NCBI RefSeq assembly: GCF_900188275.1
Contig: NZ_FZNY01000014.1
Coordinates: 1 to 50,349, forward strand
Direction of reading: 5' to 3'
Source: Dokdonia pacifica
Lineage (GTDB): Bacteria > Bacteroidota > Bacteroidia > Flavobacteriales > Flavobacteriaceae
DNA: 50,349 bases
Below the pieces are notes generated by a model. It saw nothing but the letters and a program-made list of their open reading frames with translations. It had not been told where the DNA came from and made no database searches. Below are positions 1-50,349 of the stretch, one piece after another. The position numbers and the translations under genes were made by a program. The number at the start of each line of letters is the position of its first letter. The first letter of the stretch is position 1.

Positions 1-1263
1 AATGGAACTACAGTAGCTACACATACCATGACACAAAACTTCCCTTCTCTAGTTGGAGATATGGTGATGTATGATGAAGGGACGCAAATAAGCAGCTTAA
101 ATCTCTATGCAACAACTATTGATAAGAGTCTACAAAAAGTAGATTATGCCTACAATGTTCGTGGATGGCTCACTGATATCAATGATATTAATGATAATTC
201 TAAAGAACGTGATTTGTTTAACTTCCACATCAATTATGATTCTAAAGACGGAATGACTGCTACCGGTAGTATCACCCCACTCTACAATGGAAATATCTCT
301 CAAACCATGTGGAAAACAGCAAACACTGACAATCAAATAAGAGCCTATGGATATGCCTATGATGATTTAAATAGAATTAACAGCGGATTTAGTAGGCGTG
401 GAACTAATTTCGATACCGTAGATAGTTATAGCCTCATTAATGTCAGTTATGACAAAAATGGAAATATCGGTGGTTTAGAACGTAGAGGGTTAGGATCAGG
501 TACAGAGGTAATGGATGACCTTACCTATACCTACGACGGAAATCAATTACTCAGTGTTACCGATCTAAGTGCCAATACATCAAGTAGTATTAGTAATCAG
601 GGATTCTATGATGGAAATACTTCAGGAGATGATTTTGAGTATGATGTCAATGGAAATATGATCAAAGATCGTAATAAAGGGATTACTGATAATATTGAGT
701 ACAATCACTTAAATCTGCCTGAGATTGTTAAAATCAATACAACTGACCCTTATGGATTTACTCAACAAGGAACGATTACGTATATCTACGATGCCGTAGG
801 AACAAAACTTGCAAAAATAGTGAATGATGAAATTCAAAATAGTACCATTACTACTTATTATGCAGGAAGGTATATCTATGAGAACAACAATAACTATGAA
901 TCTTTAAAAATGTTTTCACATCCTGAAGGATATGTAGAACCTGTCTATGGAACAACTAAATCTATTCAGAAGTTTAGTAATAAAACACAAACGACAAGCT
1001 TCTCTAGTTATCAATATGCTTTTAACTTTACTGACCATTTAGGAAATGTAAGACTCACTTATGCAGATTCTGATGGAGATGGAGCTATTGCGCCTTCTTC
1101 CGAAATTATTTCTGAAAAGCATTACTATCCACTAGGACTTCAGCAGAAAGGCTACAATAATACGGTTACTTCAAATTCAAACTCGATAGCGGAACAATTT
1201 GCGTACAATGGTAAAGAAAACAATCCTGAATTCGGATTAGATTGGTATGACTTTGGAGCCAGA
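1..1263 (+). repeat. Left arm of a large inverted repeat (RHS core)
   Basis: This arm is the inverted counterpart of 49090-50349. The first 95 bases match the reverse complement of the last 95 bases exactly. Roughly 270-750 matches with only scattered substitutions; divergence then rises up to the FGAR motif, after which the sequences are unrelated. The arm lies inside the RHS coding region. Confidence 0.95.
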
Positions 1264-2094
1264 CTATATCAACCAGAAACAGGACGTTGGTTTACAACTG
1301 ATGCATTTGCAGAAATGTACTATGATCAATCATCATATAATTATGTTTTAAATAATCCCATTTACTATTTTGACCCTGATGGTAATGTGGTTAAAGCTTG
1401 TTGTAATTGGGAAAAGATTGCTAGTGCGTTTAAGATTGGAATTGGTGCTTCCGCGGGTGTAGGTTTAAAAGCTAAAGTAACAAAATACGCTTCTGCAGGT
1501 GTTTCAGCTGTATTAGGAGAAGCAGACTATAGTGTGAATGATGATCTTCTTACAGTAAGAATTTTTGGGCTAAAAGGAAATTTGACTATTGGAGGTAAAG
1601 ATTTTATAGACTCCAAAGGGGATGTAACTGTAGCTACTTTAGAAATAAGAGGTTTAAGGACTATCTTTAGTGATGAAGATTTAAACGTAGAAACAAAAAG
1701 TTTTACCTTTATAAGGGCGGGCGGAAAAGCTAAAATATTTAAATTAGTAAATGCTAAAGGAGAAGCATATCTAATAAAATATGATGAAGAGGAAGGTTGG
1801 ACTGGATTAGAAGCTAATGGAGATGCAGATATAGAATTAGATAGAGTTTTTGAAAACTCTGATGTCGCTGCTGAGCTTAAGTTTGGAATAAAACTAAAAG
1901 CAGGTATAAATTTTACAGAATTATGGGAAGGTTTAACTGAACCAGATCCAGCTAGTACATATAGCCCTATCCCTCCAGAAGAAACTAATAATGAAACTAC
2001 AAATGAAGTTTGTTCTGATTGTGAAGGGAAACAAGCAGAATCAATAGAAGAGGAGAAAAGCAGCTCTATAGATCCTTCTAAAAAACAAGGATAA
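1..2094 (+). CDS. RHS repeat-associated core protein, 3' part with private C-terminal tip (5' end outside window)
   Basis: The frame is open from base 1, so the N-terminal part lies outside the window. Visible first are YD-repeat segments (YDKNGNIGGLERRG, FEYDVNGNMIKD, YIYDAVGTKLAKI). The RHS-associated core follows (DHLGNVRLTYADSDGDG, YDFGARLYQPETGRW, NNPIYYFDPDG). After the DPDG boundary the last ~235 residues are a different, tip-like domain: a glycine/alanine-rich start, many alternating beta-like strands, and an acidic tail with a CSDC motif. RHS proteins are surface-exposed or secreted beta-cage proteins whose variable tips are often toxins; I do not recognise this tip. The core is nearly identical to the inverted copy at the right end of the window, but the tips are unrelated. 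Two small membrane proteins follow and are possible immunity or accessory partners. Confidence 0.9.
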   Translation, partial: NGTTVATHTMTQNFPSLVGDMVMYDEGTQISSLNLYATTIDKSLQKVDYAYNVRGWLTDINDINDNSKERDLFNFHINYDSKDGMTATGSITPLYNGNISQTMWKTANTDNQIRAYGYAYDDLNRINSGFSRRGTNFDTVDSYSLINVSYDKNGNIGGLERRGLGSGTEVMDDLTYTYDGNQLLSVTDLSANTSSSISNQGFYDGNTSGDDFEYDVNGNMIKDRNKGITDNIEYNHLNLPEIVKINTTDPYGFTQQGTITYIYDAVGTKLAKIVNDEIQNSTITTYYAGRYIYENNNNYESLKMFSHPEGYVEPVYGTTKSIQKFSNKTQTTSFSSYQYAFNFTDHLGNVRLTYADSDGDGAIAPSSEIISEKHYYPLGLQQKGYNNTVTSNSNSIAEQFAYNGKENNPEFGLDWYDFGARLYQPETGRWFTTDAFAEMYYDQSSYNYVLNNPIYYFDPDGNVVKACCNWEKIASAFKIGIGASAGVGLKAKVTKYASAGVSAVLGEADYSVNDDLLTVRIFGLKGNLTIGGKDFIDSKGDVTVATLEIRGLRTIFSDEDLNVETKSFTFIRAGGKAKIFKLVNAKGEAYLIKYDEEEGWTGLEANGDADIELDRVFENSDVAAELKFGIKLKAGINFTELWEGLTEPDPASTYSPIPPEETNNETTNEVCSDCEGKQAESIEEEKSSSIDPSKKQG

Positions 2095-2114: not shown

Positions 2115-2510
2115 ATGAAAATTAAATATTATCTAAAAAGAATATCTGCAGCATTAATTGATGTAATTATAATAGCTATTATTATGCACCTATATGCATT
2201 AATAATAGATGATTCATTAACCACAGAGGATCAAACTATACCTACCAAAGTATTTTTACCTTTTTTTTATTTGTATTATATAGTGTCCGAAATAATATTC
2301 AAAACAACTTTAGGGAAAAGTATTTTTTCTTTAAAAATTAAGTCTGAAAAAAAAATAATATTTTTCAGAATAATTCTTAGGAATATTTTCAATTTTTTAG
2401 AAATTGTCTTACCATTTATTTATATAATCCCATTAATTATAACAGGTTATACAACTCCTAAGAAACCAAAAAAACTAGGCGATATTATTAGTGGTTGTTA
2501 CGTAGCTTAA
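2115..2510 (+). CDS. RDD-family small membrane protein
   Basis: 131 residues with three to four hydrophobic segments. The N-terminal RISAALID segment carries the Arg and Asp characteristic of RDD proteins, and the second membrane region is followed by TTLGKSIFSLKI, also typical of the family. RDD proteins are inner-membrane proteins of mostly unknown role. The gene starts 20 bases after the RHS stop, so co-transcription is likely. A membrane-embedded immunity or tip-accessory function is possible from position only. The ATG is preceded by an A-rich leader with no Shine-Dalgarno, as usual in Bacteroidota. Confidence 0.75.
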   Translation: MKIKYYLKRISAALIDVIIIAIIMHLYALIIDDSLTTEDQTIPTKVFLPFFYLYYIVSEIIFKTTLGKSIFSLKIKSEKKIIFFRIILRNIFNFLEIVLPFIYIIPLIITGYTTPKKPKKLGDIISGCYVA

Positions 2511-2521
2511 ACAAAATCAAA

Positions 2522-2911
2522 ATGTATAATATTATCTTTATTATAATATCTTCAATTACTTTTATTTTGGGTCTTTATTATTATATTAAAAACTTAAAAT
2601 TTAAAAAAGATGCAATTACTACAAGTGGTGAGGTAATTGATGTGATTGAAAAAGAGGTGTATTCATTTGAAGAAAAAATTCTCTATTATTTTCCAGTTAT
2701 ACAATTTTCAGATCAAATAGGTAATGAATATAAATTTTCATCTGAAAATGGGGAAGGAAATTCAAAAAGAAATTTTATAGGTAAAAAAGTCGAAGTATTA
2801 TATAACCCAAGAAACCCGGAAAAAGCTCAATTAAAAAAAGGAAATAATTTTATCATTGTTCTATTATTTTCTATGTCTTTACTTTTTTTATTTTTTGGAA
2901 TTATAGGGTAG
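2522..2911 (+). CDS. DUF3592-like membrane protein
   Basis: About 129 residues starting at the ATG (MYNIIFIIISS). An upstream in-frame TTG exists, but it would overlap the RDD gene and precede the first hydrophobic helix. The protein has an N-terminal membrane helix (about residues 2-20), a beta-rich extracytoplasmic domain with PVIQFSDQIGNEYKF and VEVLYNPRNPEKAQL, and a C-terminal membrane helix. The VxVxYxPxNPxxA segment is typical of DUF3592, whose role is unknown. It sits 11 bases after the RDD gene, in what looks like a short RHS tail operon. Confidence 0.7.
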   Translation: MYNIIFIIISSITFILGLYYYIKNLKFKKDAITTSGEVIDVIEKEVYSFEEKILYYFPVIQFSDQIGNEYKFSSENGEGNSKRNFIGKKVEVLYNPRNPEKAQLKKGNNFIIVLLFSMSLLFLFFGIIG

Positions 2912-3938: not shown

Positions 3939-4349
3939 TTGAAACAACAATCAAAACATAAGCTTGCAGCATTTAACTTACAAGAGATGCTCATTGTGCT
4001 AGCCATCATAGGAATACTCTTACTATTAGCGATGCCAAAATTGATGCCTCTAATTTCTAAGGCAAAAGCGATAGAGGCGCAAGCACAATTAAAGCAGATT
4101 CATAATATGCAGCTATTATATAGTTATTCGTATTCTAAGTTTTCGGGAGATTTTAATGAGATTGATTTTGAACCCCCTAAAACGGTAAAAGAAGGAGGGA
4201 CGGCTAATTATGAATACGCGATTATATCTGTTACAGGAGAAGGTTTTAAAGCAAGAGCTACAGCTATTACAGATTTTGATCGTGATGGTATTTTTAATGT
4301 TTGGGAGATTGATGAGAATGGTAATCCTAAACAAATCATTAAAGATTGA
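3939..4349 (+). CDS. gspG: Type II secretion / type IV pilus-like major pseudopilin (GspG-like)
   Basis: 136 residues. A class III prepilin leader of about 12 residues is followed by F-N-L-Q-E with the conserved Glu at +5 and a hydrophobic helix (MLIVLAIIGILLLLAMP), then a helix rich in Ala, Lys and Gln and a small C-terminal domain with DFDRDGIFNVWE. The C-terminal Asp-rich loop resembles the calcium-binding loop of GspG-type pseudopilins. The start is TTG; no in-frame ATG lies upstream of the leader. It is the first gene of the 13-gene operon, and its stop overlaps the TTG start of the prepilin peptidase. Confidence 0.85.
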   Translation: MKQQSKHKLAAFNLQEMLIVLAIIGILLLLAMPKLMPLISKAKAIEAQAQLKQIHNMQLLYSYSYSKFSGDFNEIDFEPPKTVKEGGTANYEYAIISVTGEGFKARATAITDFDRDGIFNVWEIDENGNPKQIIKD

Positions 4350-4903
4350 TAGTACTTATAAAAATAGTATTGATAGCTAGTTTACTAGCCATTTTTTATC
4401 AAGATCAAAAAGAGAGAATGGTAGACTGGTGGTTTTTTCTAATAGGCGCTATAGGTCTAGCTATACTGCATATTCAAAAAATAGGGTTTTTACAATTTGG
4501 TATTCATATATCGATGAATAGCCTTTGTGTATTATTATGTTTATTAGTAGTTGCCAGTTATACAAAAATGAAGATTCCTACTTATAAGTTTACAGAAGCT
4601 TTTGCATTAGGTGATATCCTTTTTTTTTGCATGATATTGGTAAGTTTTGGTACTATGAACTTTATGATATTATTAAGCTTTGGTATGATTTTGTCCCTTA
4701 TACTACATTCAGTTTTAAAGAAAATGAAAGGCTATAAAATATTTGGTGCTGTTCCTTATGATATATTGCAGAGGGAATACCGAGAAAAAAATATCATTTC
4801 AGAAGAACACACAGCTCCTATGGCAGGTTATTTAGCTATATTCTTTGCAGGGGTTTTATTAATTCACTGGCTAGGTTTTTATGATCACTTATATTTAATG
4901 TAA
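4346..4903 (+). CDS. Prepilin peptidase (A24 aspartyl protease type, catalytic domain only)
   Basis: 185 residues and very hydrophobic, with about six membrane helices. The two expected catalytic aspartates can be placed in YQDQKERMVDWW near the N-terminus (dispersed from the usual form) and in FALGDILFF (the GxGD-like motif, with Ala for the first Gly). The cysteine-containing methyltransferase domain of full-length PilD/GspO enzymes is absent, so this resembles the short TadV/FlaK-like form. It starts with TTG, overlapping the pseudopilin stop by four bases, which suggests translational coupling. Predicted role: cleavage of the pseudopilins of this operon at the inner membrane. Confidence 0.75.
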   Translation: MIVLIKIVLIASLLAIFYQDQKERMVDWWFFLIGAIGLAILHIQKIGFLQFGIHISMNSLCVLLCLLVVASYTKMKIPTYKFTEAFALGDILFFCMILVSFGTMNFMILLSFGMILSLILHSVLKKMKGYKIFGAVPYDILQREYREKNIISEEHTAPMAGYLAIFFAGVLLIHWLGFYDHLYLM

Positions 4904-6321
4904 TGTTGGAAGTAGACACATATCATATTCCTGTTGAATTACAACAACGTATTAGTGGGGAACAGGCCTACCAATATCGTATTGTGCCTTTTAAAGAAGA
5001 AAATGGAAGTGTTTTTTTCTATTCTGACACCTTAGAACCTGAGGCCTTATCTCAAGAACTTTTAATTTTTTTAGGATATGCAGTCACTATAGAACAAATA
5101 GATACAGATGTACTGAATACGTATTTGAGTACAAACTTTCGAAAAGCCTTTGACAATGAAAAACAAACGTTTACTTATACCCAAGATTTTTTAGAGAAAA
5201 TTCTTTTAACAGCCAAAGCGATAGGTAGTAGTGATATACATTTTGAACCTTTTGAGAATCGATGTCGTATCCGTTTTCGATTGGATGGGAAATTAAAAGA
5301 ACAATATAGTATTGCTAAGGATGAATATCCTGTGATTATCAATAAGATTAAAAATCAAGCCAATCTTGATATTTCACAGAATCGTTTACCGCAGGACGGG
5401 AGAATCACGGTAAAAACACAGACAGATGAATTTGATATTAGGGTATCTACTTTGCCTACACTGGATGGAGAAAGTATTGTCCTTCGTATTTTAAGTAAGG
5501 ACACTTCTAATATCCATTTAGATCAATTGGGGTTTACTGAAAAGGAATTGCAGATATATAAAGAAGGTGTTCGTAACCCTAATGGTATTGTATTGATATC
5601 GGGACCTACAGGTTCTGGTAAAACCACTACTTTATACGCCACCCTTAAGCTTTTAAATAAAACAGACACTAAGATTTTAACAATAGAAGATCCTATAGAA
5701 TATACCTTAGAAGGTGTGATGCAAATGCAACTCAAGGAAGAGATAGGGCTCAATTTTGAAACGGCTCTTAAAACTTTTTTACGTCAAGACCCCGATATTA
5801 TAATGGTAGGGGAGATTCGAGATGTAAAAACGGCTAACATGGCCATAAGAGCAGCACTTACAGGACATTTAGTGCTTTCTACGATACATACCAATTCTGC
5901 TTGGGGGACTATTTCTAGACTTATTGATATGGGTGTGCCTGCACACTTAATAGCAAGTACACTTAACTTAAGTGTAGCCCAACGATTGGTGCGTAAACTC
6001 TGTATCCATTGTAAAAAAGAAATGCCTGTAGAAAAGGATACGTTTCCTATCAATTATAAAGTACCTAAAGAAATAAAAAAACACTATACACCACAAGGAT
6101 GTTCTCATTGTTATCACACAGGGTATTTAGGTAGAAAAGCAATATATGAACTCCTTCCTATTACCAAGGACTTAACTGTTCATATCAAGAATAATGAAAC
6201 ACAGATCGATCAGTATCTGGAAGAGAAACGTATAAAACAATTAAGCGATCAAGCAATACATCTTATTCAAATGGGGGAAACATCTGTAGATGATGTATTT
6301 GCGTTATTAGCAAATAAATAA
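4903..6321 (+). CDS. gspE: GspE/PilB-type secretion ATPase
   Basis: 472 residues. Walker A GPTGSGKTTT is near residue 233, followed by an Asp box (TIEDPIEYTLEG), Walker B (DPDIIMVGEIRD), a His box (LSTIHTN) and a CxxC...CxxC zinc module (CIHC about 367, CSHC about 400). This is the full GspE/PilB set. The short N-terminal domain is about 100 residues. The protein is the cytoplasmic hexameric motor for pseudopilus assembly. Its ATG overlaps the preceding stop (TAATG), and the secretin gene begins at the next base after its stop. Confidence 0.97.
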   Translation: MLEVDTYHIPVELQQRISGEQAYQYRIVPFKEENGSVFFYSDTLEPEALSQELLIFLGYAVTIEQIDTDVLNTYLSTNFRKAFDNEKQTFTYTQDFLEKILLTAKAIGSSDIHFEPFENRCRIRFRLDGKLKEQYSIAKDEYPVIINKIKNQANLDISQNRLPQDGRITVKTQTDEFDIRVSTLPTLDGESIVLRILSKDTSNIHLDQLGFTEKELQIYKEGVRNPNGIVLISGPTGSGKTTTLYATLKLLNKTDTKILTIEDPIEYTLEGVMQMQLKEEIGLNFETALKTFLRQDPDIIMVGEIRDVKTANMAIRAALTGHLVLSTIHTNSAWGTISRLIDMGVPAHLIASTLNLSVAQRLVRKLCIHCKKEMPVEKDTFPINYKVPKEIKKHYTPQGCSHCYHTGYLGRKAIYELLPITKDLTVHIKNNETQIDQYLEEKRIKQLSDQAIHLIQMGETSVDDVFALLANK

Positions 6322-8499
6322 ATGATAAAAAAAATAATATTTGTATGGATGTGTGTCTTTATGACACCACTCATTTTTGCACAAGAGTACGATCAAGAGC
6401 GTATAGATCAATTAGAAAATGAGCTTACTGCTATTTCTACAGACGTGTCTGGGCTTACAGAAAAACTCAATATAGAATTACAACAAAGCAATCTTTCTAC
6501 ATTTTTATTAGGAATATCTGAGATTCACAAGATTAATATTGATGTAAATCCACAGTTACAAAGCACACAAATCATCAATAATTTTAAGGATGTCGAAGTA
6601 TCTGATGTTCTTTTATATGTTTGTAAGAATTATGATCTCACGATTGATTTTACAGGGAATATTTTATATATCACGCCTTATCAAAAAGAAGAGATTCTTA
6701 AAGAGCGTAACATTGAAATTCAATATGATCCCACTGGTCAGATACTAAGCGTAGATTTAAAGAATGATAATCTCTCAGAAGCTTTTAAATTAATTTCGGA
6801 TACTTCTGGAAAGGGGATATTTTATACGCCTGAATTAGCAAACAAAACCATTTCTGGCTTTATTAAAGAACTTCCATTTGCTATTGCCATGGAGAAAATA
6901 GCATACTCTAATGATTTGGTTGTTTCCAAAACTAAAGATGGTTCTTTTGAGTTTACATCAGGAATTATACAATCTTCAGCAGAGAATGGAGATAGAAATC
7001 AACAACGAACTCGTCCTATAAGAGCTCGGAATGCTAGTTTTTTCTTTAAGGTTTTAGACAAAGAAAATGGCATTTTAGATGTAGATATTCAAAATGTGCC
7101 GATAGCAGATATTATTTATGATATAGGTAATGAATTAGGATTAGATATTTTTACAGCATCTCCTTTAAATGAAGCAGGTTTTGCAAGTGTTAGTGCAAAA
7201 AACATTTCTTTTGATAGCTTACTAACTAAGATTTTTGAGAATACTACACTGGCTTTGAACTCATCTCAAAATAATAATCAAAACAATACTGGAAGAACAA
7301 CAGATAGAAGTCAGGATATTACTCCTACAAGTCCTGTAAACCGATTTACTTTTAAAAAGGAAAATGGGGTGTATTATTTTGGAACGTATAGGCAACTTAC
7401 CCTTCGTTCGGCAGAAGTGATCCCACTTCGTTACCGTTCTATAGGACTACTATCAGATCCTCAACGTTCTGGTAGAAGTGCGGGAAGATCCAATACAAGT
7501 TTTGGTTTTAATTCTGGATTTAGAGGGAATGGATCAAATTTTGGAAATACAACAGGGAATGTTGATAGAGGTGTTCAAAGCAGTAGAGAGCGTGAAAATG
7601 ATCGAGATAAAACAGATATAAGTTCACTTATTCCTGATGATGTAAAACAAGATTTGAATATCATAGCAGACAAAGAACTTAATAGCTTTATTGTGAGCGG
7701 TGCTAGTGCCGATATAGAGCGTTTTAAACGCTTTGTAAAAGAAATAGATAAACAAGTTCCTATTGTTATTGTCGAGGTAATGATTTTGGAGGTAAATAAA
7801 AACTCTACACTAGATACGGGTATTGAATGGGGTATTGGTTCTCAGCCTACAACAACGCAAGGAGCGATATTTCCAGAGACCAATATTAATTTAGGCGCCA
7901 GCACGATTAATCGTATTTTAGGACGTATTGATGGCTCTAGCTTTTTTAATATAGGACAAGTAGGACCGAACTTTTTTGCCAATATTAGAGCTTCTGAATC
8001 TAATGGTAACTTTAAGATTAAATCATCTCCTCGTATCACAACCCTCAATGGACATCGCGCTTATTTTTCTAATGGACAGACAAGTTATTTTGAAGTTACA
8101 CAAAATCAATTTGTGGGAACCCAAAATCCAATATTAAGTGAAAGTGTAAATTTTGTTCCTGTAGATGCAGAGCTTTCTCTTGAGGTACTTCCTTTTGTTT
8201 CTGCTGATGGAGAAGTAACGATGGATATTAAGGTGATTCAGTCGAGTTTTAATGGAGAACGTGTCACAGAAAATGGACCACCTGAAATTAGCTCCAGAGA
8301 ATTTACATCTATTATTAAATCCCGCACCAATGATATTGTTGTATTAGGAGGATTGGAAGAAAATCGAAAAAGTAATTCAGGTTCTGGGGTTCCTTTTTTA
8401 GCACGTATTCCAATTATAAAGTTTTTATTTAGCAAACGCGTACGTACCGCTTCCACATCAAAACTCACAGTACTTATAAAACCAACGGTTATTTACTAA
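6322..8499 (+). CDS. gspD: Outer-membrane secretin (GspD/PilQ type)
   Basis: 725 residues with a signal peptide (about 1-20, ending FAQ), a short coiled-coil-like stretch, STN/N0-like and N-domain repeats, and a long Ser/Asn/Arg-rich linker around 380-430. The C-terminal secretin domain contains PIVIVEVMILEVN, the SPRITTLNGHRA strand, and the hallmark end VLGGLEENRK...VPFLARIPIIKFLFSKR. The protein forms the multimeric outer-membrane channel. It is inside the operon; the last base of its stop is the first base of the next start. Confidence 0.96.
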   Translation: MIKKIIFVWMCVFMTPLIFAQEYDQERIDQLENELTAISTDVSGLTEKLNIELQQSNLSTFLLGISEIHKINIDVNPQLQSTQIINNFKDVEVSDVLLYVCKNYDLTIDFTGNILYITPYQKEEILKERNIEIQYDPTGQILSVDLKNDNLSEAFKLISDTSGKGIFYTPELANKTISGFIKELPFAIAMEKIAYSNDLVVSKTKDGSFEFTSGIIQSSAENGDRNQQRTRPIRARNASFFFKVLDKENGILDVDIQNVPIADIIYDIGNELGLDIFTASPLNEAGFASVSAKNISFDSLLTKIFENTTLALNSSQNNNQNNTGRTTDRSQDITPTSPVNRFTFKKENGVYYFGTYRQLTLRSAEVIPLRYRSIGLLSDPQRSGRSAGRSNTSFGFNSGFRGNGSNFGNTTGNVDRGVQSSRERENDRDKTDISSLIPDDVKQDLNIIADKELNSFIVSGASADIERFKRFVKEIDKQVPIVIVEVMILEVNKNSTLDTGIEWGIGSQPTTTQGAIFPETNINLGASTINRILGRIDGSSFFNIGQVGPNFFANIRASESNGNFKIKSSPRITTLNGHRAYFSNGQTSYFEVTQNQFVGTQNPILSESVNFVPVDAELSLEVLPFVSADGEVTMDIKVIQSSFNGERVTENGPPEISSREFTSIIKSRTNDIVVLGGLEENRKSNSGSGVPFLARIPIIKFLFSKRVRTASTSKLTVLIKPTVIY

Positions 8500-10226: not shown

Positions 10227-10235
10227 AAATAGATA

Positions 10236-10961: not shown

Positions 10962-10962
10962 A

Positions 10963-11634: not shown

Positions 11635-11637
11635 AAG

Positions 11638-35944: not shown

Positions 35945-35948
35945 GGGT

Positions 35949-39017: not shown

Positions 39018-39024
39018 TAAAAAA

Positions 39025-39044: not shown

Positions 39045-39049
39045 CATAT

Positions 39050-39505: not shown

Positions 39506-39593
39506 AATAATTAAGTTTTAAATTCTAGATTATCATATCATTACAAAAACAAATGTCAATATTTAATTACTTGTATAATAGATACTTACAATA

Positions 39594-39821: not shown

Positions 39822-39911
39822 AAAGGTTAGTAGGTTAATTTCGGATAAAACATACCTTAATTATAAAAGCGTAAGCTTTTATAGAAGTATAGAAGAATAT
39901 TCTTAACAATA

Positions 39912-40623: not shown

Positions 40624-40961
40624 TTTAAATTGTTGATTTATGTACCTGCAACCTTAGGACGTGATATCCAATACCCTTATATCTTATGAAGATAGCGGTG
40701 TCGTAAAACCCCTATTGGGTTTCGCGACAAGCAAGTCCTGAACCATATATTTTACGACGTTGTATTGTCATATTTTTCACCCCTACTAGGGGCTTGGTTC
40801 AGGAGAATGCAGAGGTAGTCATTTCAATACAAAGTATTACTTTGTAAAAACTATCTTATAAAACATAAAGGTATGTATAGTTGCAAGGTACTGGCATCAG
40901 TATAACCTAGATAATATTTCTTTACAAATCATTTAAAAAACAACGTTTTTAAAGTTGTTTT
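40624..40961. other. Structured intergenic region, candidate replication origin
   Basis: The region is bracketed by GTACCTGCAAC (40642-40652) and GTTGCAAGGTAC (40880-40891). Inside are GTCGTAAAA (40700-40708) with TTTTACGAC (40750-40758), TCCTGAACC (40736-40744) with GGTTCAGGA (40796-40804), CCCCTACTAGGGG (40780-40792), and TACAAAG with CTTTGTA (40828-40846). It lies between the recombinase stop and the Rep operon start. An origin of replication, a folded leader RNA or an attachment site are all possible. Confidence 0.6.
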
Positions 40962-41852
40962 TTAGGCTGTCTTTAAGAATCTTCCTGCGGTTTGTTTATA
41001 TCGACTTTCGGATAGTTGCAAGTAATGCATACTAGATTCAACAGCGATATGTCGAAGAATAGCACTTACATCCCTGACATTTCCGCCTTGATCTAGTATC
41101 TCATTGGCTTTTCCGTGTCTAAAACTATGCGGAGTAATATTTTTGTCTATAAGTGTCATTGCTGTGATTTCTTTAATCCATCGTTGTACGCTTCTTGATG
41201 TATAGGATTTATCTGTTTTAGGATTGATAAATAAGTAATTGTTTTCTGTTTCCATGCATAATCTCATTCCTAGATATTGATTCAACAGCTCATTGGTATC
41301 TGTTCCCCATACTACAAGATTATATCTCATATTCTTTCGAGTACGTACCTTGGCGGTGCGAAGTCCATTGATTCCTTGTTTACTAATATCATTAAGTTTA
41401 ATATCTAATAGTTCACTAATACGCATCCCTGTATCCCATAGTAAATGTATGATGAGCTTTTTAATCAGTTCATTAGCATATCGCTCATCCAACACCATGA
41501 TCAATTGCTCAAAATCTTCTTTGGTTACAATATCTTTTTCGGCATTGATAAATTTAGCTGATTTAATCTCTTCAGGATTGAGTTTAGATTTACCACGACC
41601 TTTCCAGAATTTAAAGAAGTTACGAATAATTCTTGCTGAGTACGCTATCGTAGCGGGACTATACTCTTTCTCTTCCATAGATTCGTGGTATTCGATAATG
41701 TGATCTTCGTGGATAGTTTCAAGTCTAGTGATTGCTTTTTCTTCGAGGAATATTTTAAGTAATTTTAAATGGCGATGATAAGGAACATATGCTTTGTTAG
41801 TATGACGATTTTTCCAACGTAAATAAGTCTGTATTGATTCTTTGATTTCCAT
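40962..41852 (-). CDS. Tyrosine recombinase (integrase/Xer type)
   Basis: 296 residues. An N-terminal SAM-like core-binding domain (about 1-95) is followed by a catalytic domain with R144 (TGMRISELL), H242-x-x-R245 (PHSFRHGKA), H268 (LRHIAVESS) and Y277 (MHYLQL): the full set of an active enzyme. Length and lack of an arm-binding domain are Xer-like. It may resolve multimers of a plasmid-like element or integrate it. A hairpin and short inverted repeats sit just upstream of the start. Confidence 0.93.
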   Translation of the reverse strand: MEIKESIQTYLRWKNRHTNKAYVPYHRHLKLLKIFLEEKAITRLETIHEDHIIEYHESMEEKEYSPATIAYSARIIRNFFKFWKGRGKSKLNPEEIKSAKFINAEKDIVTKEDFEQLIMVLDERYANELIKKLIIHLLWDTGMRISELLDIKLNDISKQGINGLRTAKVRTRKNMRYNLVVWGTDTNELLNQYLGMRLCMETENNYLFINPKTDKSYTSRSVQRWIKEITAMTLIDKNITPHSFRHGKANEILDQGGNVRDVSAILRHIAVESSMHYLQLSESRYKQTAGRFLKTA

Positions 41853-42247: not shown

Positions 42248-43414
42248 ATGAATCTCGACTATCTTAACGAGGTCAGCTATTTTGCACGTACCAATTTTAG
42301 GAGTGAACACAAACGTTTTGGTATAAAACAAGCCGATAGGCTATTTCATTTGTATGCTTTTGGTAAGTCTGGAAGTGGTAAAACTTCCCTACTTAAGACA
42401 CTAATGTATCAAGATGCAGAAGCTAGGAGAGGATTTGCTTTTGTAGATGTTCATGGAGATGCCTCACGTGAGGTTATTGAAAAACTTAAATCTCGGTTTC
42501 CCTATAGAAGCTATATATACTTTGACGTTACCGATGCTAATCTTGATATTGGGTATAATCCACTTAGAAAAGTATCCGTTTCTAAACGCTCATTAGTGGC
42601 TTCTAACATTCTGGAAATCTTCCAAAGAAATTGGAAATCTGCTTGGGGAATGAAGATGGAACACATTCTTAGAATGATCTTGCTTACTTTATTAGATCAG
42701 CCGAAAGCACAGCTTTCAGACATCTTAAAACTCTTACACGAGAGATCATATCGAGATGAATGTTTAGTCCATATTCACAACCCCGACATCAAAAACTTTT
42801 GGATAAAAGAGTTCCCAAAATACAAACCAAACGATTTGTTACCCATAATGAACAAACTCGGTGGATTTTTATCACATCGAATGGTGCGAAAAATCTTGAT
42901 TGAAAACACCAATCAGTTATCACTTCGCTCGATAATTGATAGCAATCAGATTCTTATTATCAACCTTGCCAAGGGAGAAGTTGGAGCAGACGTCGCTAAT
43001 ATTTTGGGTGGATTGCTTCTCACTTCCCTTGCATCGGCTTCTTTCTCTCGCATTGATATGCTAGAGGACGAACGAACGCCATATTACTTATACATAGATG
43101 AGTTTCAAACTCTGTCAGGCACAGAACTCATCGCCGAACTATTGGCACAGATTCGTAAGTTCAAAGTTGGACTCATTCTCGCTAATCAATTCCTTTCTCA
43201 ATTAGATGCCGAAGTACGTAATAGTGTCCTTGGAAATGTCGGAACTATTATTTGTTTTCGATTAGGAATTACTGATGCCAACTTAATGGCAAAAGAATTC
43301 TATCCAATCTTTAAAACAACTGACTTCACTTCCCTTGCCAATTACTCCATCTATCTCAAATTAATGATAGACGGAAAACCCTCTGTTCCCTTTAGTGCAG
43401 ATACCATTCTTTAA
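42248..43414 (+). CDS. TraD/VirD4-like ATPase (second coupling-type protein)
   Basis: 388 residues. Walker A AFGKSGSGKTSLLKTL is at about 37-52, then FVDVHGDASREVIEKL (typical of T4SS DNA-binding ATPases), an NLAKGEVGADVANILGGLLL segment, Walker B YYLYIDEFQTL (about 280) and ILANQFLSQLDAEVR. It is more like the DNA-pumping TraD/TrwB/DUF87 type than the VirD4-like protein in the mobilization operon. There are no N-terminal membrane helices. It is first in a five-gene + strand run 42248-45802. Confidence 0.85.
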   Translation: MNLDYLNEVSYFARTNFRSEHKRFGIKQADRLFHLYAFGKSGSGKTSLLKTLMYQDAEARRGFAFVDVHGDASREVIEKLKSRFPYRSYIYFDVTDANLDIGYNPLRKVSVSKRSLVASNILEIFQRNWKSAWGMKMEHILRMILLTLLDQPKAQLSDILKLLHERSYRDECLVHIHNPDIKNFWIKEFPKYKPNDLLPIMNKLGGFLSHRMVRKILIENTNQLSLRSIIDSNQILIINLAKGEVGADVANILGGLLLTSLASASFSRIDMLEDERTPYYLYIDEFQTLSGTELIAELLAQIRKFKVGLILANQFLSQLDAEVRNSVLGNVGTIICFRLGITDANLMAKEFYPIFKTTDFTSLANYSIYLKLMIDGKPSVPFSADTIL

Positions 43415-43457
43415 AAGGTCTATGACCTCATTTCAATAACTTAAAAACTCAATATCA

Positions 43458-43928
43458 ATGAAACCAAAAAAACAACATCCCTTGGATATTGCTTTATGCA
43501 ATGAAGTCCAAATACATTACAAACGCCCTGTATATGACGAGACAAAAAATATAAAAGGCAGTAAATCTGCTGAAGCTATTTTTCGTGATTTTGTCGATAC
43601 TGAGCGATTGGATTTTAAAGAGTTCTTTTTCGTCATGCTTGTCACCAATGCCAATCAAGTGATCGCCATTAGCGAAATATCAGTTGGTGGTACAACCGGT
43701 ACACTCGTAAACATTAAAGAGGTTGTACAATTAGCCATTCTTACGAATGCTTCTGGAGTACTTATTTGTCATAACCATCCATCGGGCGTGCTTAAAAAAT
43801 CAACGTCTGATGAAGCAACAACTCAGCGTATCAAGGGAGCCCTTGGCTTACTTGATATTAAATTACTCGATCACATCATCCTAACTACTGAAAATTATAC
43901 TTCCTTCTCTGATGAAGGTTGGTTATAG
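43458..43928 (+). CDS. RadC-like JAB domain protein (second)
   Basis: 156 residues with the JAMM site: E55 (DFKEFFFVML), then CHNHPSGVLKKSTSDE with H105, H107, S116 and D118. Unlike the first copy, it keeps the canonical HNHPSG. The N-terminal region has KRPVYDETKNIKGS, common in element-borne RadC. It lies between a coupling-type ATPase and an adenine methylase, a grouping often seen among anti-restriction genes. Confidence 0.93.
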   Translation: MKPKKQHPLDIALCNEVQIHYKRPVYDETKNIKGSKSAEAIFRDFVDTERLDFKEFFFVMLVTNANQVIAISEISVGGTTGTLVNIKEVVQLAILTNASGVLICHNHPSGVLKKSTSDEATTQRIKGALGLLDIKLLDHIILTTENYTSFSDEGWL

Positions 43929-43939
43929 CTTGACCTTTT

Positions 43940-44740
43940 ATGCCCAAACTCAAAACTCCAATTACTTACTATGGCGGAAAGCTTAATATGCTATCGCATA
44001 TTCTCCCACTAATTCCACAACACAAAATCTACACCGAAGCTTTTTTTGGTGGTGGTGCCGTCTTTTTCGCGAAAGCGGAATCTGAATCAGAAACCATCAA
44101 TGATACAAACAACCTTGTAGTTAATTTCTATGAAGTCGTTAAAACTGATTTTGTTTCGCTTAAAGCGAAAATAGAAGCAACCTTATTCTCACGGGCGACG
44201 TATTCCGTTGCTCTAGCAATCTATCGAATGCCTCACTTGTTTAACAAATTGCAACAAGCCTGGGCATTTTACATAGCTACCAATATGGGATTTGCCTGTA
44301 ACGTGGGATCTTGGGGATATGATAAGTATGGGAAACGAGTTAAGGCATTTAGGAATAAGAAGATTGCCTTTGATGAGTCGATTTATAAACGGTTAGAGAA
44401 TGTACAGATTGAGAACAATGATGCATTAAAAGTAATCACCAGTCGTGATGCTGTAGATGCCTTTCATTATGTCGACCCTCCGTATATCAATTCTGATCAA
44501 GGATTGTATGGCGGATATACCGAAAATGATTATCGTAAACTCTTAGATACCCTTTCTAATATCAAAGGAAAATTTCTCTTGTCTTCGTATCCTTCTGATA
44601 TCTTGGATGAGTATATCCAAGAGAACGGATGGTACACCAAGCGATTTGAAAAACCACTTAACGCCAGTCTTGGTAAAAGTGGTGAGGCTCGAACTTCTAA
44701 AAAAGTAGAAGTACTAACAGCCAATTACTCTATTGAATAA
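43940..44740 (+). CDS. DNA adenine methyltransferase (D12/Dam class)
   Basis: 266 residues. TPITYYGGKLNML (residues 6-18) and AFFGGGAVFF (34-43) form the AdoMet-binding part; D179-P-P-Y182 is the catalytic motif IV; a target-recognition region lies between about 60 and 165. This is the DpnM/Dam layout. No restriction partner is adjacent, so it is an orphan methylase that may protect the mobile DNA during transfer. It starts 11 bases after the JAB gene stop. Confidence 0.95.
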   Translation: MPKLKTPITYYGGKLNMLSHILPLIPQHKIYTEAFFGGGAVFFAKAESESETINDTNNLVVNFYEVVKTDFVSLKAKIEATLFSRATYSVALAIYRMPHLFNKLQQAWAFYIATNMGFACNVGSWGYDKYGKRVKAFRNKKIAFDESIYKRLENVQIENNDALKVITSRDAVDAFHYVDPPYINSDQGLYGGYTENDYRKLLDTLSNIKGKFLLSSYPSDILDEYIQENGWYTKRFEKPLNASLGKSGEARTSKKVEVLTANYSIE

Positions 44741-44778
44741 CACAAACAAATAATTATTAATTTTTAAAACTGAATATT

Positions 44779-45414
44779 ATGGAAACACCAAGTATTGTTG
44801 ATACGCTGATACAGAATATCACTACCGATCAAGAACTCTTAAAAGATGCTGATGCAAAGATTACCCAAGCCAAAGAAGAAAAAGTAACTGTTGCAGATCG
44901 TCTCAAAGGCTATCGAAAAGAAGCAGAAGTTTTTTTAAAGTATGCAAATGAAGAACAAAAGAAACAGATTGAAGCCCTTGGCTTTGATACTGCTGAAACT
45001 AGAAGTTCATTAAATGATGTGGCCACACGAGCATTAAACATTATTATGGAGACTAAAGGTAATTCACTTACCAATGATGAGCTTTATACCATCTATGCAG
45101 GGAGTCATAAAAGCCCAAAAGATGCGCTAAACTATACCGCCTTTAATATTAAATGTAGACCATTGTTTAATAGCCAGCGATTAATTCGCAAAAAAGCAGC
45201 AGAGGGATTGTCTTCTCGTGAGGATATCATTTCACTCAATGGTACGCCTATTAAAAAGGAAGAACGAAAAGACGGTGTAGTGGAAGTAAAAGAAACATCT
45301 GAAATAAAAGATGATGCAAAGCAAGCTGAAAAGAAAGAAGCGTCCAAAACCATTGCTCTTAAAAAAGGGACACCTAACAAGAAGAAAGATGATACGACAG
45401 CAACAAAAAAGTAA
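44779..45414 (+). CDS. Hypothetical helical protein with lysine-rich tail
   Basis: 211 residues: a coiled-coil-like N-terminus (KDADAKITQAKEEKVTVADRL), a middle helical domain (RSSLNDVATRALNIIMETKGNSLTNDELYTIYAG), and a long Lys/Glu/Ala-rich C-terminal tail (KDDAKQAEKKEASKTIALKKG, KKKDDTTATKK) like histone-like or DNA-coating tails. No family is recognised. It belongs to the + strand accessory operon and overlaps the next gene by 26 bases. DNA binding is plausible from composition only. Confidence 0.6.
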   Translation: METPSIVDTLIQNITTDQELLKDADAKITQAKEEKVTVADRLKGYRKEAEVFLKYANEEQKKQIEALGFDTAETRSSLNDVATRALNIIMETKGNSLTNDELYTIYAGSHKSPKDALNYTAFNIKCRPLFNSQRLIRKKAAEGLSSREDIISLNGTPIKKEERKDGVVEVKETSEIKDDAKQAEKKEASKTIALKKGTPNKKKDDTTATKK

Positions 45415-45802
45415 GGCAATAGATAACGCCTTATGGTTAAACTTTGAACATCGTAGAACTGATAAAGAGTACGGCGTTATTCAAAGTATTGAACATGATT
45501 ATTTAATAGTGCCTGTCGATCATCCAACCGTTGTTGGAGAAACCTTTGAAATATTACCTGAAAGTTACACTTCCCTTTCCTATGATAGGATTGCCGAAAT
45601 CTTTGCAGACCTTAATCCATTATGGTTTTGGGAGGAGCTTAAAGGAACCTTTGGAACTTTGAACGGAGAGCTTCTCAGGTTTTTGCTTGCCTATGACATT
45701 CCGCTTGAAAAACTGATTCGCTATAGCTTATCTGCTCGTGGGTATGACAAGGAAATGCAATGGGTTGGATTTAATAAAGCTAAGGAGATTTGGTTGGAAT
45801 AA
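45389..45802 (+). CDS. Hypothetical protein with WxxxEELKGT-like helical domain
   Basis: 137 residues from ATG 45389 (MIRQQQKSKAID), chosen over earlier starts that would overlap the preceding gene by more than 100 bases. A short strand-rich segment (EYGVIQSIEHDYLIVPVDHPTVVGETFEILP) precedes a helical C-terminus (AEIFADLNPLWFWEELKGTF, ARGYDKEMQWVGFNKAKEIWLE). No family is recognised. It is the last gene of the run and is followed by a good terminator. Confidence 0.65.
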   Translation: MIRQQQKSKAIDNALWLNFEHRRTDKEYGVIQSIEHDYLIVPVDHPTVVGETFEILPESYTSLSYDRIAEIFADLNPLWFWEELKGTFGTLNGELLRFLLAYDIPLEKLIRYSLSARGYDKEMQWVGFNKAKEIWLE

Positions 45803-47701: not shown

Positions 47702-48244
47702 TTATATTTTCAAATGAATAGTATCCGTAACTTCTTTAGATTCATTTACTAAATACTTTATTCCAGAATCAAGTCTTCCTCTAACAATATCAAAATCATA
47801 GATAGCTAATGAATCATTATCAATTATATTAAAATTCTGAATTTCAGAATTCACTTCTATTGGAAGATCTGCATCAACAGGACAATATGCATTTAAAAGA
47901 TAATTAAATTTTAAAGTATAATTTTCTGGAATCGTAATCTTTTCTCTTATTAAATCAATACAATACATTGTGAATTCATCTTTATCAAGATTTGGATTTT
48001 CAATATCATATATCCAAGTTAATGTTACTGATGTTGAATCATCTGAAAATTTAATGTTATTTTCTTTAGAAAGAACAAACTCTTTTTTCTTAATAGTTTC
48101 TAATGACCACTCTTTTAAAGATTTAGAATCACATTCTGTAACGCTTTTCGATTCTACAGATTTTTCTACTGAGTCCTTATTTTCTTTACAAGAAAAAAAT
48201 GTAACACATACGATACCAATATAAATTAACTTTTTAATTACCAT
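47702..48244 (-). CDS. Lipoprotein overlapping the RHS tip, candidate immunity protein
   Basis: 180 residues with a lipobox (CVTFFSCKEN, lipidated Cys about 19). The mature domain is mixed alpha/beta with three further Cys residues, including AYCPVDADLPIEVN, and no enzyme motif. Its ATG overlaps the stop of the RHS gene by one base (TAATG), so translation is probably coupled. A one-base overlap with a tip-bearing RHS gene and periplasmic lipidation fit an immunity lipoprotein that neutralises a periplasm- or cell-wall-acting tip. This is inference from context; family is not recognised. Confidence 0.7.
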   Translation of the reverse strand: MVIKKLIYIGIVCVTFFSCKENKDSVEKSVESKSVTECDSKSLKEWSLETIKKKEFVLSKENNIKFSDDSTSVTLTWIYDIENPNLDKDEFTMYCIDLIREKITIPENYTLKFNYLLNAYCPVDADLPIEVNSEIQNFNIIDNDSLAIYDFDIVRGRLDSGIKYLVNESKEVTDTIHLKI

Positions 48245-50349
48245 TATTTTTTAAATTTTGTTTCCGATTGTTTTCTTTCTCCCCTTCCCGTCAAAAGTTT
48301 AGTGAAAATAGTCTTCTTCACGATCCTTTGAACCTGTATTTGAGGGTTTTTACTTGTATAAGTCCATTTTCCAACTTTTACGCCACCATTATTATCTTTT
48401 CTATACTTCTCAACTAGTGATTTAGAATCAGAAGACCATCTATAGCCTCTATGACTATTACTATGCTTTGTAGATATTAGATCTATTCCATCCCATCCAT
48501 TTGCACCTCCAGAATAATCAGTACCACCAGAAAGTGCATTTATTACTGCACCAATTTCGTTTTCAGAGTTTTTATTTTTTGATTTTAGATATTCTGAATA
48601 ACCTTTTTGAGTAGCACCTTGTATAAAGTTATTATCATAGAGTACTAAATCTTCAAGCGTTTGTAATTGTGTACTGCCTCCTTCAGCTAAGAAATTTAAA
48701 GTAGTACTCGCTATTGCAAAAGATTCATTTTTATCTCCGCTAGATTCTTCTGCAACAGCTGCTGCAAATCCAAGAAACACATCATGACTAACTGCTTCGC
48801 CATCATGCTTTAATTGACCAAAACTTCCTTCAACCCATTCATCCTGATAACTACCATCAGGATTATGAGTTCTTTTTTTACCTTCTCCTTCTTGCCATGC
48901 ATACACATCATCTTTATCATCATCAGTTTCAAAAAGAAATGTTCCATCTTGTGCATAGTAATACGATTCTCCTTCTGGATCAATAAAAATAATCGGATTA
49001 TTTGCAACATTATGATAAGGAGACATATCAACATATAAATCAGCCATAGGATCAATATTCATCCATCTACCTAAAGAAGCATCATAATTTCTTGCTCCGA
49101 AGTCGTACCATTCCAGTCCAAGTTCAGGATTATTTTCTTTTCCGTTGAAGGCAAAACGTTCCGCCATGGAGTTAGAATTGGATGTAACCACGTCATTATA
49201 TCCTTTTTGCTGTAATCCAAATGGATAATAGTGTTTTTCAGATATAATTTCAGAAGAAGGTGTAATCGCCCCATCTCCATCCGAATCTGCATAGGTGAGT
49301 CTTACATTTCCTAAATGGTCTGTATAGTTAAATGCATATTGATACGAAGAGAAGGATGTAGCCTGCGTTAAAGTATTAAATTTCTGGATAGATTTAGAGG
49401 TGCTATATACTGGTTCTACATATCCTTCGGGGTGTGGAAACATTTTTAAGGATTCAACATTATTGTTATTATTCTCATAGATATATCCACCTGCATAATA
49501 GGTCGTGATAGTACTATTTTGAGACTGATCATCCACAATTTTAGCTAGTTTTATTCCAGTAGCATCGTAAATATACGTAATCGTTCCTTGCTGAGTATTT
49601 CCTTGAGAGTCAGTTGTATTGATTTTAACAATCTCAGGCAGATTTAAATGATTGTACTCAATATTATCAGTAATCCCTTTATTACGATCTTTGATCATAT
49701 TTCCATTGACATCATACTCAAAATCATCTCCTGAAGTATTTCCATCATAGAATCCCTGATTACTAATACTACTTGATGTATTGGCACTTAGATCGGTAAC
49801 ACTGAGTAATTGATTTCCGTCGTAGGTATAGGTAAGGTCATCTATCACCTCTGTACCTGATCCTAACCCTCTACGTTCTAAACCACCAATGTTACCATTT
49901 TTGTCATAACTCACATTAATAAGGCTATAACTATCTACGGTATCGAAATTAGTTCCACGCCTACTAAATCCGCTGTTAATTCTATTTAAATCATCATAGG
50001 CATATCCATAGGCTCTTATTTGATTATCAGTGTTTGCTGTTTTCCACATGGTTTGAGAAATATTTCCATTGTATAGAGGAGTAATACTTCCTGTGGCGCT
50101 CATTCCTTGTTTAGAATCATAATTGATATGAAAATGAAAAAGATCACCTTCTTTTGAGTTGTTATTATTTATATCGGTGAGCCATCCCCGTATGTTATAC
50201 TGATAGTCTACTTTCTGTAGACTCTTATTAATATTGGTTGCATAGAGATTTAAACTGCTTATTTGCGTCCCTTCATCATACATCACCATATCTCCAACTA
50301 GAGAAGGGAAGTTTTGTGTCATGGTATGTGTAGCTACTGTAGTTCCATT
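48244..50349 (-). CDS. RHS core protein, 3' part with hydrolase-like tip (5' end outside window)
   Basis: Open to the right window edge, so the N-terminal part is missing; about 701 residues are visible. The RHS core ends YDFGARNYDASLGRWMNIDP...NNPIIFIDPEGESY. The following ~240-residue tip differs from the other copy. It contains ESFAIASTTLNFLAEGG, an AVINALSGGTDYSGGANGWDG segment and a basic C-terminus. The spacing of ESFAIAS, INALSGG and GGANGWDG recalls SleB-like cell-wall hydrolases (EAxAVAxVxxNR ... DPTxGA), a tentative fold match only. Tip identity is inference. The lipoprotein gene that follows overlaps the stop and is the likely immunity partner. Confidence 0.9.
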   Translation of the reverse strand, partial: NGTTVATHTMTQNFPSLVGDMVMYDEGTQISSLNLYATNINKSLQKVDYQYNIRGWLTDINNNNSKEGDLFHFHINYDSKQGMSATGSITPLYNGNISQTMWKTANTDNQIRAYGYAYDDLNRINSGFSRRGTNFDTVDSYSLINVSYDKNGNIGGLERRGLGSGTEVIDDLTYTYDGNQLLSVTDLSANTSSSISNQGFYDGNTSGDDFEYDVNGNMIKDRNKGITDNIEYNHLNLPEIVKINTTDSQGNTQQGTITYIYDATGIKLAKIVDDQSQNSTITTYYAGGYIYENNNNNVESLKMFPHPEGYVEPVYSTSKSIQKFNTLTQATSFSSYQYAFNYTDHLGNVRLTYADSDGDGAITPSSEIISEKHYYPFGLQQKGYNDVVTSNSNSMAERFAFNGKENNPELGLEWYDFGARNYDASLGRWMNIDPMADLYVDMSPYHNVANNPIIFIDPEGESYYYAQDGTFLFETDDDKDDVYAWQEGEGKKRTHNPDGSYQDEWVEGSFGQLKHDGEAVSHDVFLGFAAAVAEESSGDKNESFAIASTTLNFLAEGGSTQLQTLEDLVLYDNNFIQGATQKGYSEYLKSKNKNSENEIGAVINALSGGTDYSGGANGWDGIDLISTKHSNSHRGYRWSSDSKSLVEKYRKDNNGGVKVGKWTYTSKNPQIQVQRIVKKTIFTKLLTGRGERKQSETKFKK
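49090..50349 (-). repeat. Right arm of the large inverted repeat (RHS core)
   Basis: Inverted counterpart of 1-1263. The outermost 95 bases are identical, followed by substitutions, near-identity over the middle of the core, and increasing divergence toward the FGAR motif. Beyond it the RHS tips are unrelated. Confidence 0.95.

What the first reader, a model, noticed from the sequence alone, without database searches (positions are those of the whole stretch)
1..50349. Inverted RHS cores at both ends with different tips: possible 50-kb inversion or tip exchange
Seen: 1-1263 and 49090-50349 are inverted copies of one RHS core. The outermost 95 bases and long internal tracts (about 270-750) are nearly identical, and then the tips and downstream genes are completely different. 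Known: in RHS systems the core is conserved while tips are exchanged by recombination. Inference: homologous recombination between the copies would invert the intervening ~48 kb and swap which N-terminal RHS part is joined to which tip/immunity cassette, or gene conversion homogenises the cores. The exact identity of both ends also suggests that an assembly was broken at this repeat, which must be excluded first.
Basis: partly seen in the sequence, partly recalled or inferred. Interest (0 to 1): 0.75.

Follow-up and report, generated by a model that had tools for sequence, protein, structure and literature searches.

The report
Broken RHS toxin genes beside secretion operon
The mirror-image ends of this piece of a marine bacterium's genome are halves of two shuffled toxin-like genes where the assembly broke, and many relatives keep such genes next to one poorly understood secretion machine, which makes that machine a good candidate for exporting them.

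Summary
In detail: window 1-1263 and 49090-50349 are inverted RHS-core copies (87.6%) followed by unrelated tips. The window is a whole contig of a 31-contig draft and its ends are assembly breaks: 15 of 17 pairwise contig-end overlaps among readable termini are exactly 95 bases, so the identical outer 95 bases are the assembler's overlap. Three tips and three N-terminal halves lie on six contig ends; which half joins which tip is unresolved. The cores are mosaics (A/B differ 2.4% at 295-749, about 20% on both sides), which supports gene conversion or tip exchange. A 50-kb inversion remains possible but untested. The larger finding lies between the arms: a type II secretion-like operon (3939-15296) beside an intact RHS pair (15679-24471). 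In 299 family genomes all 60 with its ATPase carry an RHS core; 80 of the 188 RHS-core-negative genomes, checked at a lax cut-off, carry no such ATPase. RHS genes lie within 10 kb in 59 of 80 named loci. I infer that this machine exports two-part RHS toxins. One published Flavobacterium cluster hints at the link; my ten searches found no general statement of it.

The parts
1..2094 (+). RHS2 gene A, 3' half only (5' half lost at the contig end); core 1 to about 1383, tip about 1384-2094
   Evidence: open frame from base 1; TIGR03696 Rhs_assc_core at residues 390-461
1..95 (+). terminal stretch identical to the other contig end: assembler overlap
50255..50349 (-). the same 95-base overlap at the right end
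295..749 (+). tract converted or exchanged between copies A and B (2.4% differences; flanks about 20%)
49607..50061 (-). the same tract in copy B (coordinates reckoned from the alignment, approximate)
2115..2911 (+). two proteins (RDD family; DUF3592), candidate immunity genes of tip A
   Evidence: Pfam RDD 6.7e-14 and DUF3592 4.8e-8; role inferred from position only
3939..15296 (+). T2SS-like operon: major pseudopilin 3939-4349, prepilin peptidase-like 4346-4903, ATPase 4903-6321, secretin 6322-8499, platform-like proteins 8499-10226 (weak PilO match for the second, the first by position), further proteins, pseudopilin-like 13328-14172 (13696-14172 by Pfam N_methyl, 13328-13699 by eye), GspF-type 14163-15296
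   Evidence: same gene order in genus relatives
15679..20313 (-). fourth RHS2, intact, 1544 aa, DUF6443 plus Rhs_assc_core, convergent with the operon
20323..24471 (-). RHS1 partner, 1382 aa, RHS/YD repeat at its C-terminus
   Evidence: a low-confidence model of a relative resembles Rhs and TcB shells
47702..48244 (-). lipoprotein-like gene after tip B, candidate immunity gene
   Evidence: lipobox-like N-terminus read by eye; no Pfam family
48244..50349 (-). RHS2 gene B, 3' half only; tip about 48244-48966
42248..45802 (+). mobile-element cluster: coupling-protein-like ATPase, RadC, D12 methylase and two more genes; homologues lie beside RHS genes in G017 (BLAST) and on contig C15 (by eye)
29707..41852 (.). 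mobilisation region with relaxase, VirD4-like coupling protein and tyrosine recombinase, and other genes between them

Best explanation
The two inverted arms are the 3' halves of two of four RHS2 polymorphic-toxin-like genes in a flavobacterium of the same genus as records titled Dokdonia. Assembly broke in a centre of RHS2 that is shared, and so probably identical, between copies. The copies exchange sequence by homologous recombination or gene conversion through centre and core, which can re-pair N-terminal halves with tip/immunity cassettes (shown: mosaic identity; inferred: re-pairing). RHS1 and RHS2 together would form a split hollow shell around the tip, each carrying a Sec-type signal peptide. 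From the periplasm they are most likely exported by the T2SS-like machine encoded beside them (inferred from conserved neighbourhood and co-occurrence; no export was measured).
For: Assembly: whole-contig window; pairwise contig-end overlaps of exactly 95 bases in 15 of 17 cases among readable termini, and the C15 terminus found exactly, 95 bases long, inside C17; three N-halves and three tips on six contig ends. Mosaic. Machine-cargo link: family sample of 299: ATPase (E <= 1e-100) in 60, DUF6443 in 64, both in 54, Fisher p 4.6e-42; RHS core in 111, including 60 of 60 ATPase genomes; 0 of 80 RHS-core-negative genomes (of 188) had even an E <= 1e-15 match (the same query matched 60 genomes). 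Of 63 ATPase places, 38 had a listed DUF6443 within 30 kb. Phylum sample of 392: ATPase (E <= 1e-90) 32, DUF6443 67, both 26, p 4e-17; 22 of 34 ATPase places have a listed DUF6443 within 30 kb; outside the own family 15 of 21 ATPase genomes have DUF6443. Named loci: RHS1/RHS2 homologues in the fetched flank in 59 of 80. N-termini of RHS1/RHS2 look like Sec signal peptides (by eye). The RHS proteins scanned carry no T9SS sorting domain by Pfam, although Pfam finds one in another protein of this window. A single ATPase of this superfamily was found in this genome at E <= 0.001, so no PilT was found.
Against: No export data. 51 of 111 RHS-core genomes and 10 of 64 DUF6443 genomes of the family sample lack the ATPase at the cut-off used; in the phylum sample 41 of 67 DUF6443 genomes lack it, among them six genomes of one genus in family f2, and 6 of 32 ATPase genomes lack DUF6443. 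Within the genus, G014 has a 53% ATPase homologue but no match to the A core. 21 of 80 named loci show no RHS homologue in the fetched flank. Of 63 ATPase places of the family sample, 18 have no listed DUF6443 on the same contig and 7 more have it over 30 kb away (the match list was truncated). The p-values ignore shared ancestry. Immunity genes are guesses by position; no tip matched a known toxin domain. The identical centre is inferred, not seen.
Confidence: 0.6

Rival explanations
1. The 50-kb contig is a real invertible segment: recombination between the two convergent RHS2 genes flips it and swaps which N-terminal half drives tip A and which drives tip B.
For: Both ends are RHS2 3' halves in convergent orientation; a shared centre, with its 95-base edges about 500 bases, is inferred; evidence for recombination between rhs genes that share 522 bp at 95% identity is given for Salmonella (PMC3967940, passages).
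Against: No reads or second isolate. With three tips and three N-halves the two arms need not lie on neighbouring N-halves. In the stretches of four genus relatives laid out (G007, G009, G013, G017) the RHS genes beside the operon are tandem, co-directional or divergent, not an inverted pair around it.
Confidence: 0.15
2. RHS genes and the T2SS-like operon are merely neighbours on the same genomic islands and have no functional tie.
For: Mobilisation genes and recombinases lie in the window and by other RHS genes of this genome; both features are patchy across the family; many RHS genomes lack the machine.
Against: The association persists outside the family, where the ATPase is only 43-56% identical; 60 of 60 against 0 of 80; a related response regulator is also kept between RHS1 and the pseudopilin gene in 20 of 80 loci.
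Confidence: 0.2
3. The machine is a DNA-uptake or adhesion filament coupled to killing by RHS, and takes up tip cassettes instead of exporting toxin.
For: The secretin scores best against PilQ and also matches the DNA-uptake porin HofQ, both under their cut-offs; the major pseudopilin has a sub-threshold ComP match; the Bacteroidetes system of this kind branches with T4aP (PMC6668835, passages).
Against: Only one ATPase of this superfamily was found in the genome at E <= 0.001, although the query itself matches the PilT family at 5e-52, so no retraction motor was found (12 short contigs were not readable at their termini). RHS1/RHS2 have Sec-type N-termini by eye and would need an outer-membrane route.
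Confidence: 0.15
4. The inverted arms are a pure assembly error (a chimeric contig).
For: The contig ends are assembly breaks.
Against: The arms carry different tips and different downstream genes and are 12% diverged; a break at a repeat truncates genes but does not create two different tips.
Confidence: 0.05

Closest known systems
Rhs/YD-repeat polymorphic toxins (T6SS-linked Rhs proteins such as RhsA and Tre23)
   Same: RHS-associated core, conserved core with variable tip, mosaic identity between copies
   Different: split into RHS1 and RHS2; Sec-type N-termini; no PAAR/VgrG-type domain found in the window pair (that this is the usual T6SS route is recalled); DUF6443 N-terminal region; linked to a T2SS-like operon
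Putative T2SS of Cytophaga hutchinsonii and other Bacteroidetes (PMC5553014, passages and section 19)
   Same: same main components and the same pseudopilin - peptidase - ATPase - secretin neighbourhood in the published gene numbers
   Different: there linked to cellulose use; 'rhs' does not occur in the held main text. No direct sequence comparison with it was made here
35-kb T2S cluster of Flavobacterium psychrophilum CC-ST10 (PMC5808330, passages)
   Same: T2S genes with two proteins carrying domains of the Yersinia entomophaga ABC toxin: probably one case of the present association (not compared by sequence)
   Different: reported for one lineage, read as possible virulence; the passages seen do not generalise it
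Tc toxin B/C shell (YenB/YenC2)
   Same: two polypeptides forming an RHS shell; the RHS2 profile matches YenC2 (E 4e-12); a low-confidence RHS1 model resembles YenB and the SpvB N-terminal domain
   Different: a TcA-like injection component was not looked for; different neighbourhood

Membership tests
RHS polymorphic toxin | RHS-associated core domain | tested here: met
   TIGR03696 over its cut-off in A, B, the C9 copy and the window RHS2
RHS polymorphic toxin | variable C-terminal tip after a conserved core | tested here: met
   A/B identity ends near 1263 and the sequences after it differ
RHS polymorphic toxin | toxic tip with cognate immunity protein | not testable with these tools
   no Pfam family in four tips at E <= 5; immunity candidates by position only
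T6SS-delivered Rhs | PAAR or VgrG-type N-terminal domain (recalled as defining) | tested here: not met
   window RHS1 and RHS2 show only RHS_repeat and DUF6443 in Pfam at E <= 0.001; the three N-halves on other contigs were not scanned with Pfam
T9SS substrate | C-terminal sorting domain | tested here: not met
   none in five RHS proteins at E <= 0.001; PF18962 found at 27714-29435 as positive control
Type II secretion system (equivalog level) | ATPase and secretin over the curated T2SS cut-offs | tested here: not met
   GspE 464 bits against 630; GspD 135 against 351
Type IV filament superfamily, Bacteroidetes T2SS-like branch | secretin, ATPase, platform protein, pseudopilin and prepilin peptidase in one cluster | tested here: met
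   Secretin 1.6e-36, T2SSF 8.2e-46 and N_methyl over cut-off; ATPase by NCBIfam below equivalog cut-offs; Peptidase_A24 below cut-off. Branch placement by tree was not tested
Type IVa pilus | PilT retraction ATPase | tested here: not met
   one ATPase match in the genome at E <= 0.001; 12 short contigs had unreadable termini
Tc toxin | TcA injection subunit | not tested
   not searched

The most novel reading that the evidence does not exclude
The so-called T2SS of Bacteroidota is a dedicated delivery machine for split-shell RHS polymorphic toxins, an export route separate from T6SS and T9SS, and the tips of its cargo are re-paired by recombination at the RHS2 centre, in this strain possibly through a 50-kb inversion.
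Probability: 0.35. Interest if true: 0.85.

Novelty: new variant of a known kind. Interest (0 to 1): 0.6.

Why it matters
How Sec-type RHS toxins of Bacteroidota leave the cell has no named machine in the passages I read: the large 2012 survey lists only a signal peptide and no signature neighbour gene for that route (PMC3482391, passages). [quoted passage not shown] A tight link between the two makes both questions testable with single gene removals. For the inversion itself the stakes are modest: recombination that joins new tips to rhs genes is already described (PMC3967940, passages).

Tried and rejected
Protein scan of genome contigs with the RHS core: 57 pattern matches, none confirmed. 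Pfam at E <= 5 for four tips: nothing. PADLOC for six window proteins: nothing. RHS1 profile against PDB sequences: best E 0.18, inconclusive. The RHS1 fold model (of the relative L096) has mean pLDDT 58; its 42 Foldseek matches at E <= 0.001 are nearly all Rhs, Tc and teneurin shells plus SpvB (best E 2.7e-14) but query TM-scores are only 0.09-0.34, so they are support, not proof. Resolving which N-half joins which tip was given up: no reads, and the relatives looked at did not resolve it. Considered and dropped: the 95-base identity as a recombination site, because it is assembly-wide. That 95 is a common largest k of one sequencing centre is recalled and was not confirmed (one search failed).

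Dropped before counts: 24 contig termini that read only N (of 56 fetched, of 62 in all) before the 95-base count, which also ignores overlaps under 20 bases. The family and phylum match lists were truncated by the tool, so adjacency counts are lower bounds.
Full report
Observation. The window carries one inverted repeat pair, 1-1263 against 49090-50349, 87.6% identical over 1267 columns. Both arms are 3' halves of RHS genes with a curated RHS-associated core domain, followed by unrelated tips.

The ends are assembly breaks. The window is exactly contig C28 of a draft of 5,520,745 bases in 31 contigs. The two arms share exactly their outer 95 bases. A third tip copy at the end of contig C9 shares 95 bases with arm A and 113 with arm B; two contig ends that carry N-terminal RHS halves (C10, C17) share exactly 95; the terminus of C15 occurs exactly, for 95 bases, inside C17. 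I then compared all 62 contig termini: after dropping 24 termini that read only N, 17 pairwise overlaps of 20 bases or more remained, of which 15 are exactly 95 bases and the others 113 and 129. The outer identity is therefore the assembler's overlap length. The smallest contig is 1080 bases, so a short collapsed repeat could have been filtered out, or could lie in an unreadable contig.

Three halves and three tips. A search of the own genome with the intact window RHS2 found N-terminal halves at the ends of C10, C15 and C17, and tips starting at both ends of C28 and at the end of C9. Mapped on an intact relative (G017, 1422 aa), the C10 and C17 halves stop near residue 624 (C15 near 579) and the tips resume near residue 728. 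So about 310 bases are unresolved; with 95 shared bases on each side a shared block of roughly 500 bases is inferred. Six pairings are possible. The convergent orientation of the two arms on one contig is real as assembled, so an intramolecular exchange would invert about 50 kb, but nothing here shows that it happens.

Mosaic cores. Differences A/B are 0/95, 38/193, 11/455 and 88/451 in the A intervals 1-95, 96-294, 295-749 and 750-1200; A/C are 0/95, 19/199, 102/443 and 102/451. At third codon positions A/B is 6.6% in 295-749 against 41.5% before and 37.1% after it. The longest A/B run was not matched in 10,000 shuffles of sites, a control that ignores dependence between sites. This fits gene conversion or recombination among the three copies. 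For Salmonella, evidence is given for recombination between a main and an orphan rhs gene that share 522 bp at 95% identity (PMC3967940, passages). Relative G017 holds rows of short genes that begin with a piece of RHS core and look like orphan tips.

The operon between the arms. Window 3939-15296 encodes a secretin (PF00263, 1.6e-36), a GspF-type platform protein (PF00482, 8.2e-46), a GspE/PilB-type ATPase, pseudopilin-like proteins and a weakly scoring prepilin peptidase. Curated T2SS and pilus equivalog cut-offs are not reached. That suits the divergent Bacteroidetes branch described in PMC6668835 (passages) and PMC5553014 (section 19), though I built no tree. Next to it, convergent, lie an intact RHS2 (15679-20313) and its partner RHS1 (20323-24471).

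Conservation in the genus. Of 18 genomes, own included, 6 match the RHS core and 7 the ATPase; all 6 RHS genomes have the ATPase. In G000, G007, G009, G013 and G017 RHS genes lie beside the operon; in G012 the ATPase contig is too short to tell. G014 is an exception: a 53% ATPase homologue without a match to the RHS core query. Contig lengths of G013, G009 and G017 equal those of records titled Dokdonia, so the host is most likely of that genus by the held taxonomy.

Conservation in the family and phylum. In 299 family genomes from 236 genera the ATPase (E <= 1e-100) occurs in 60, DUF6443 in 64, both in 54 (Fisher p 4.6e-42). The RHS core domain occurs in 111, among them all 60 ATPase genomes. 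To check the cut-off I searched the first 80 of the 188 RHS-core-negative genomes at E <= 1e-15: 0 of 80 matched. Of 63 ATPase places, 45 have a listed DUF6443 on the same contig, 30 within 20 kb, 38 within 30 kb. In 392 phylum genomes the ATPase (E <= 1e-90) occurs in 32, DUF6443 in 67, both in 26 (p 4e-17); 22 of 34 ATPase places have a listed DUF6443 within 30 kb, and 15 of 21 ATPase genomes outside the own family carry DUF6443. The p-values ignore shared ancestry. The reverse is looser: 51 of 111 RHS-core and 10 of 64 DUF6443 genomes of the family sample lack the ATPase, and 41 of 67 DUF6443 genomes in the phylum sample; 6 of 32 ATPase genomes of the phylum sample lack DUF6443 (their RHS core was not tested). 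So in the family the machine is found with RHS, while RHS is often found without the machine.

Named loci. A scan with the major pseudopilin returned 80 loci of 365 confirmed matches. RHS1/RHS2 homologues lie in the fetched flank in 59 of 80, and upstream of the pseudopilin in 41 of 56 loci that hold at least 9 kb there. The common layout is RHS1-RHS2 divergent from the operon. A related response regulator lies between RHS1 and the pseudopilin in 20 of 80 loci.

How it may work. RHS1 and RHS2 start with Sec-type signal peptides by eye, so they should reach the periplasm and need an outer-membrane route. The RHS proteins scanned carry no T9SS sorting domain, which Pfam does find in another protein of this window, and the window pair has no PAAR/VgrG-like domain. 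The RHS2 profile matches a mosquito-type salivary RHS protein (8fjp, 6.2e-17; the source organism is recalled), YenC2, an Rhs family protein and teneurin-like proteins. A low-confidence model of a relative's RHS1 (mean pLDDT 58) matches Rhs shells, YenB and the SpvB N-terminal domain. Together this suggests a split shell holding the tip, exported folded or partly folded through the secretin. Candidate immunity proteins look like membrane proteins or lipoproteins, as one would expect if the toxin crosses the producer's own envelope (inference).

Literature. Ten searches were made. DUF6443 gave no paper. The closest precedent is a 35-kb cluster in Flavobacterium psychrophilum CC-ST10 with T2S genes and two proteins bearing ABC-toxin domains (PMC5808330, passages). 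A 2012 survey labels Sec-type toxins, RHS among their repeats, 'T2SS/Sec-dependent' but lists no signature neighbour gene (PMC3482391, passages). TANFOR toxins of Bacteroidetes are proposed T9SS substrates (PMC7073777, outline and passages). A Flavobacterium columnare comparison lists T4P/T2SS parts and an RHS protein without linking them in the passages seen (PMC5524665). I did not find the general association in print; most subscription papers and bioRxiv preprints are outside the library.

Verdict. The inverted arms are a real but ordinary consequence of recombining RHS paralogues plus an assembly break. The association of the T2SS-like machine with split RHS genes is the part worth a specialist's time. 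Export itself is inferred.

Noticed in passing
L071 (G017:C6:258000-277999): Several short genes starting with a piece of RHS core lie next to a full-length RHS pair: they look like a row of orphan tip cassettes.
   Followed up: partly
L078-L152, for example L078:9321-9995: A related response regulator of about 225 aa sits between RHS1 and the major pseudopilin gene in 20 of 80 loci.
   Followed up: partly
window 42248-45802; L021:6357-9509; L069:7699-11929: A similar mobile-element cluster (coupling-type ATPase, RadC, D12 methylase, small genes) lies beside RHS genes in the window, on C15 (by eye) and in relative G017.
   Followed up: partly
window 35751-39017: A 1088-aa protein with a sub-threshold NACHT match beside mobilisation genes; no PADLOC match. 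Possibly a STAND-type defence protein.
   Followed up: partly
G089:C7:17908, G223:C1:406982, G174:C1:3239092 and similar: Near a more distant ATPase group (about 47-56% identity) weak DUF6443 matches lie in giant open frames of about 3000-3700 aa, perhaps RHS1 and RHS2 fused.
   Followed up: no
window 12111-13382: An operon protein with a sub-threshold bactofilin match, conserved in genus relatives.
   Followed up: no
family f2, genus g237 genomes: Many DUF6443 genes in six genomes with no ATPase match at E <= 1e-90: another export route or a lost machine.
   Followed up: no
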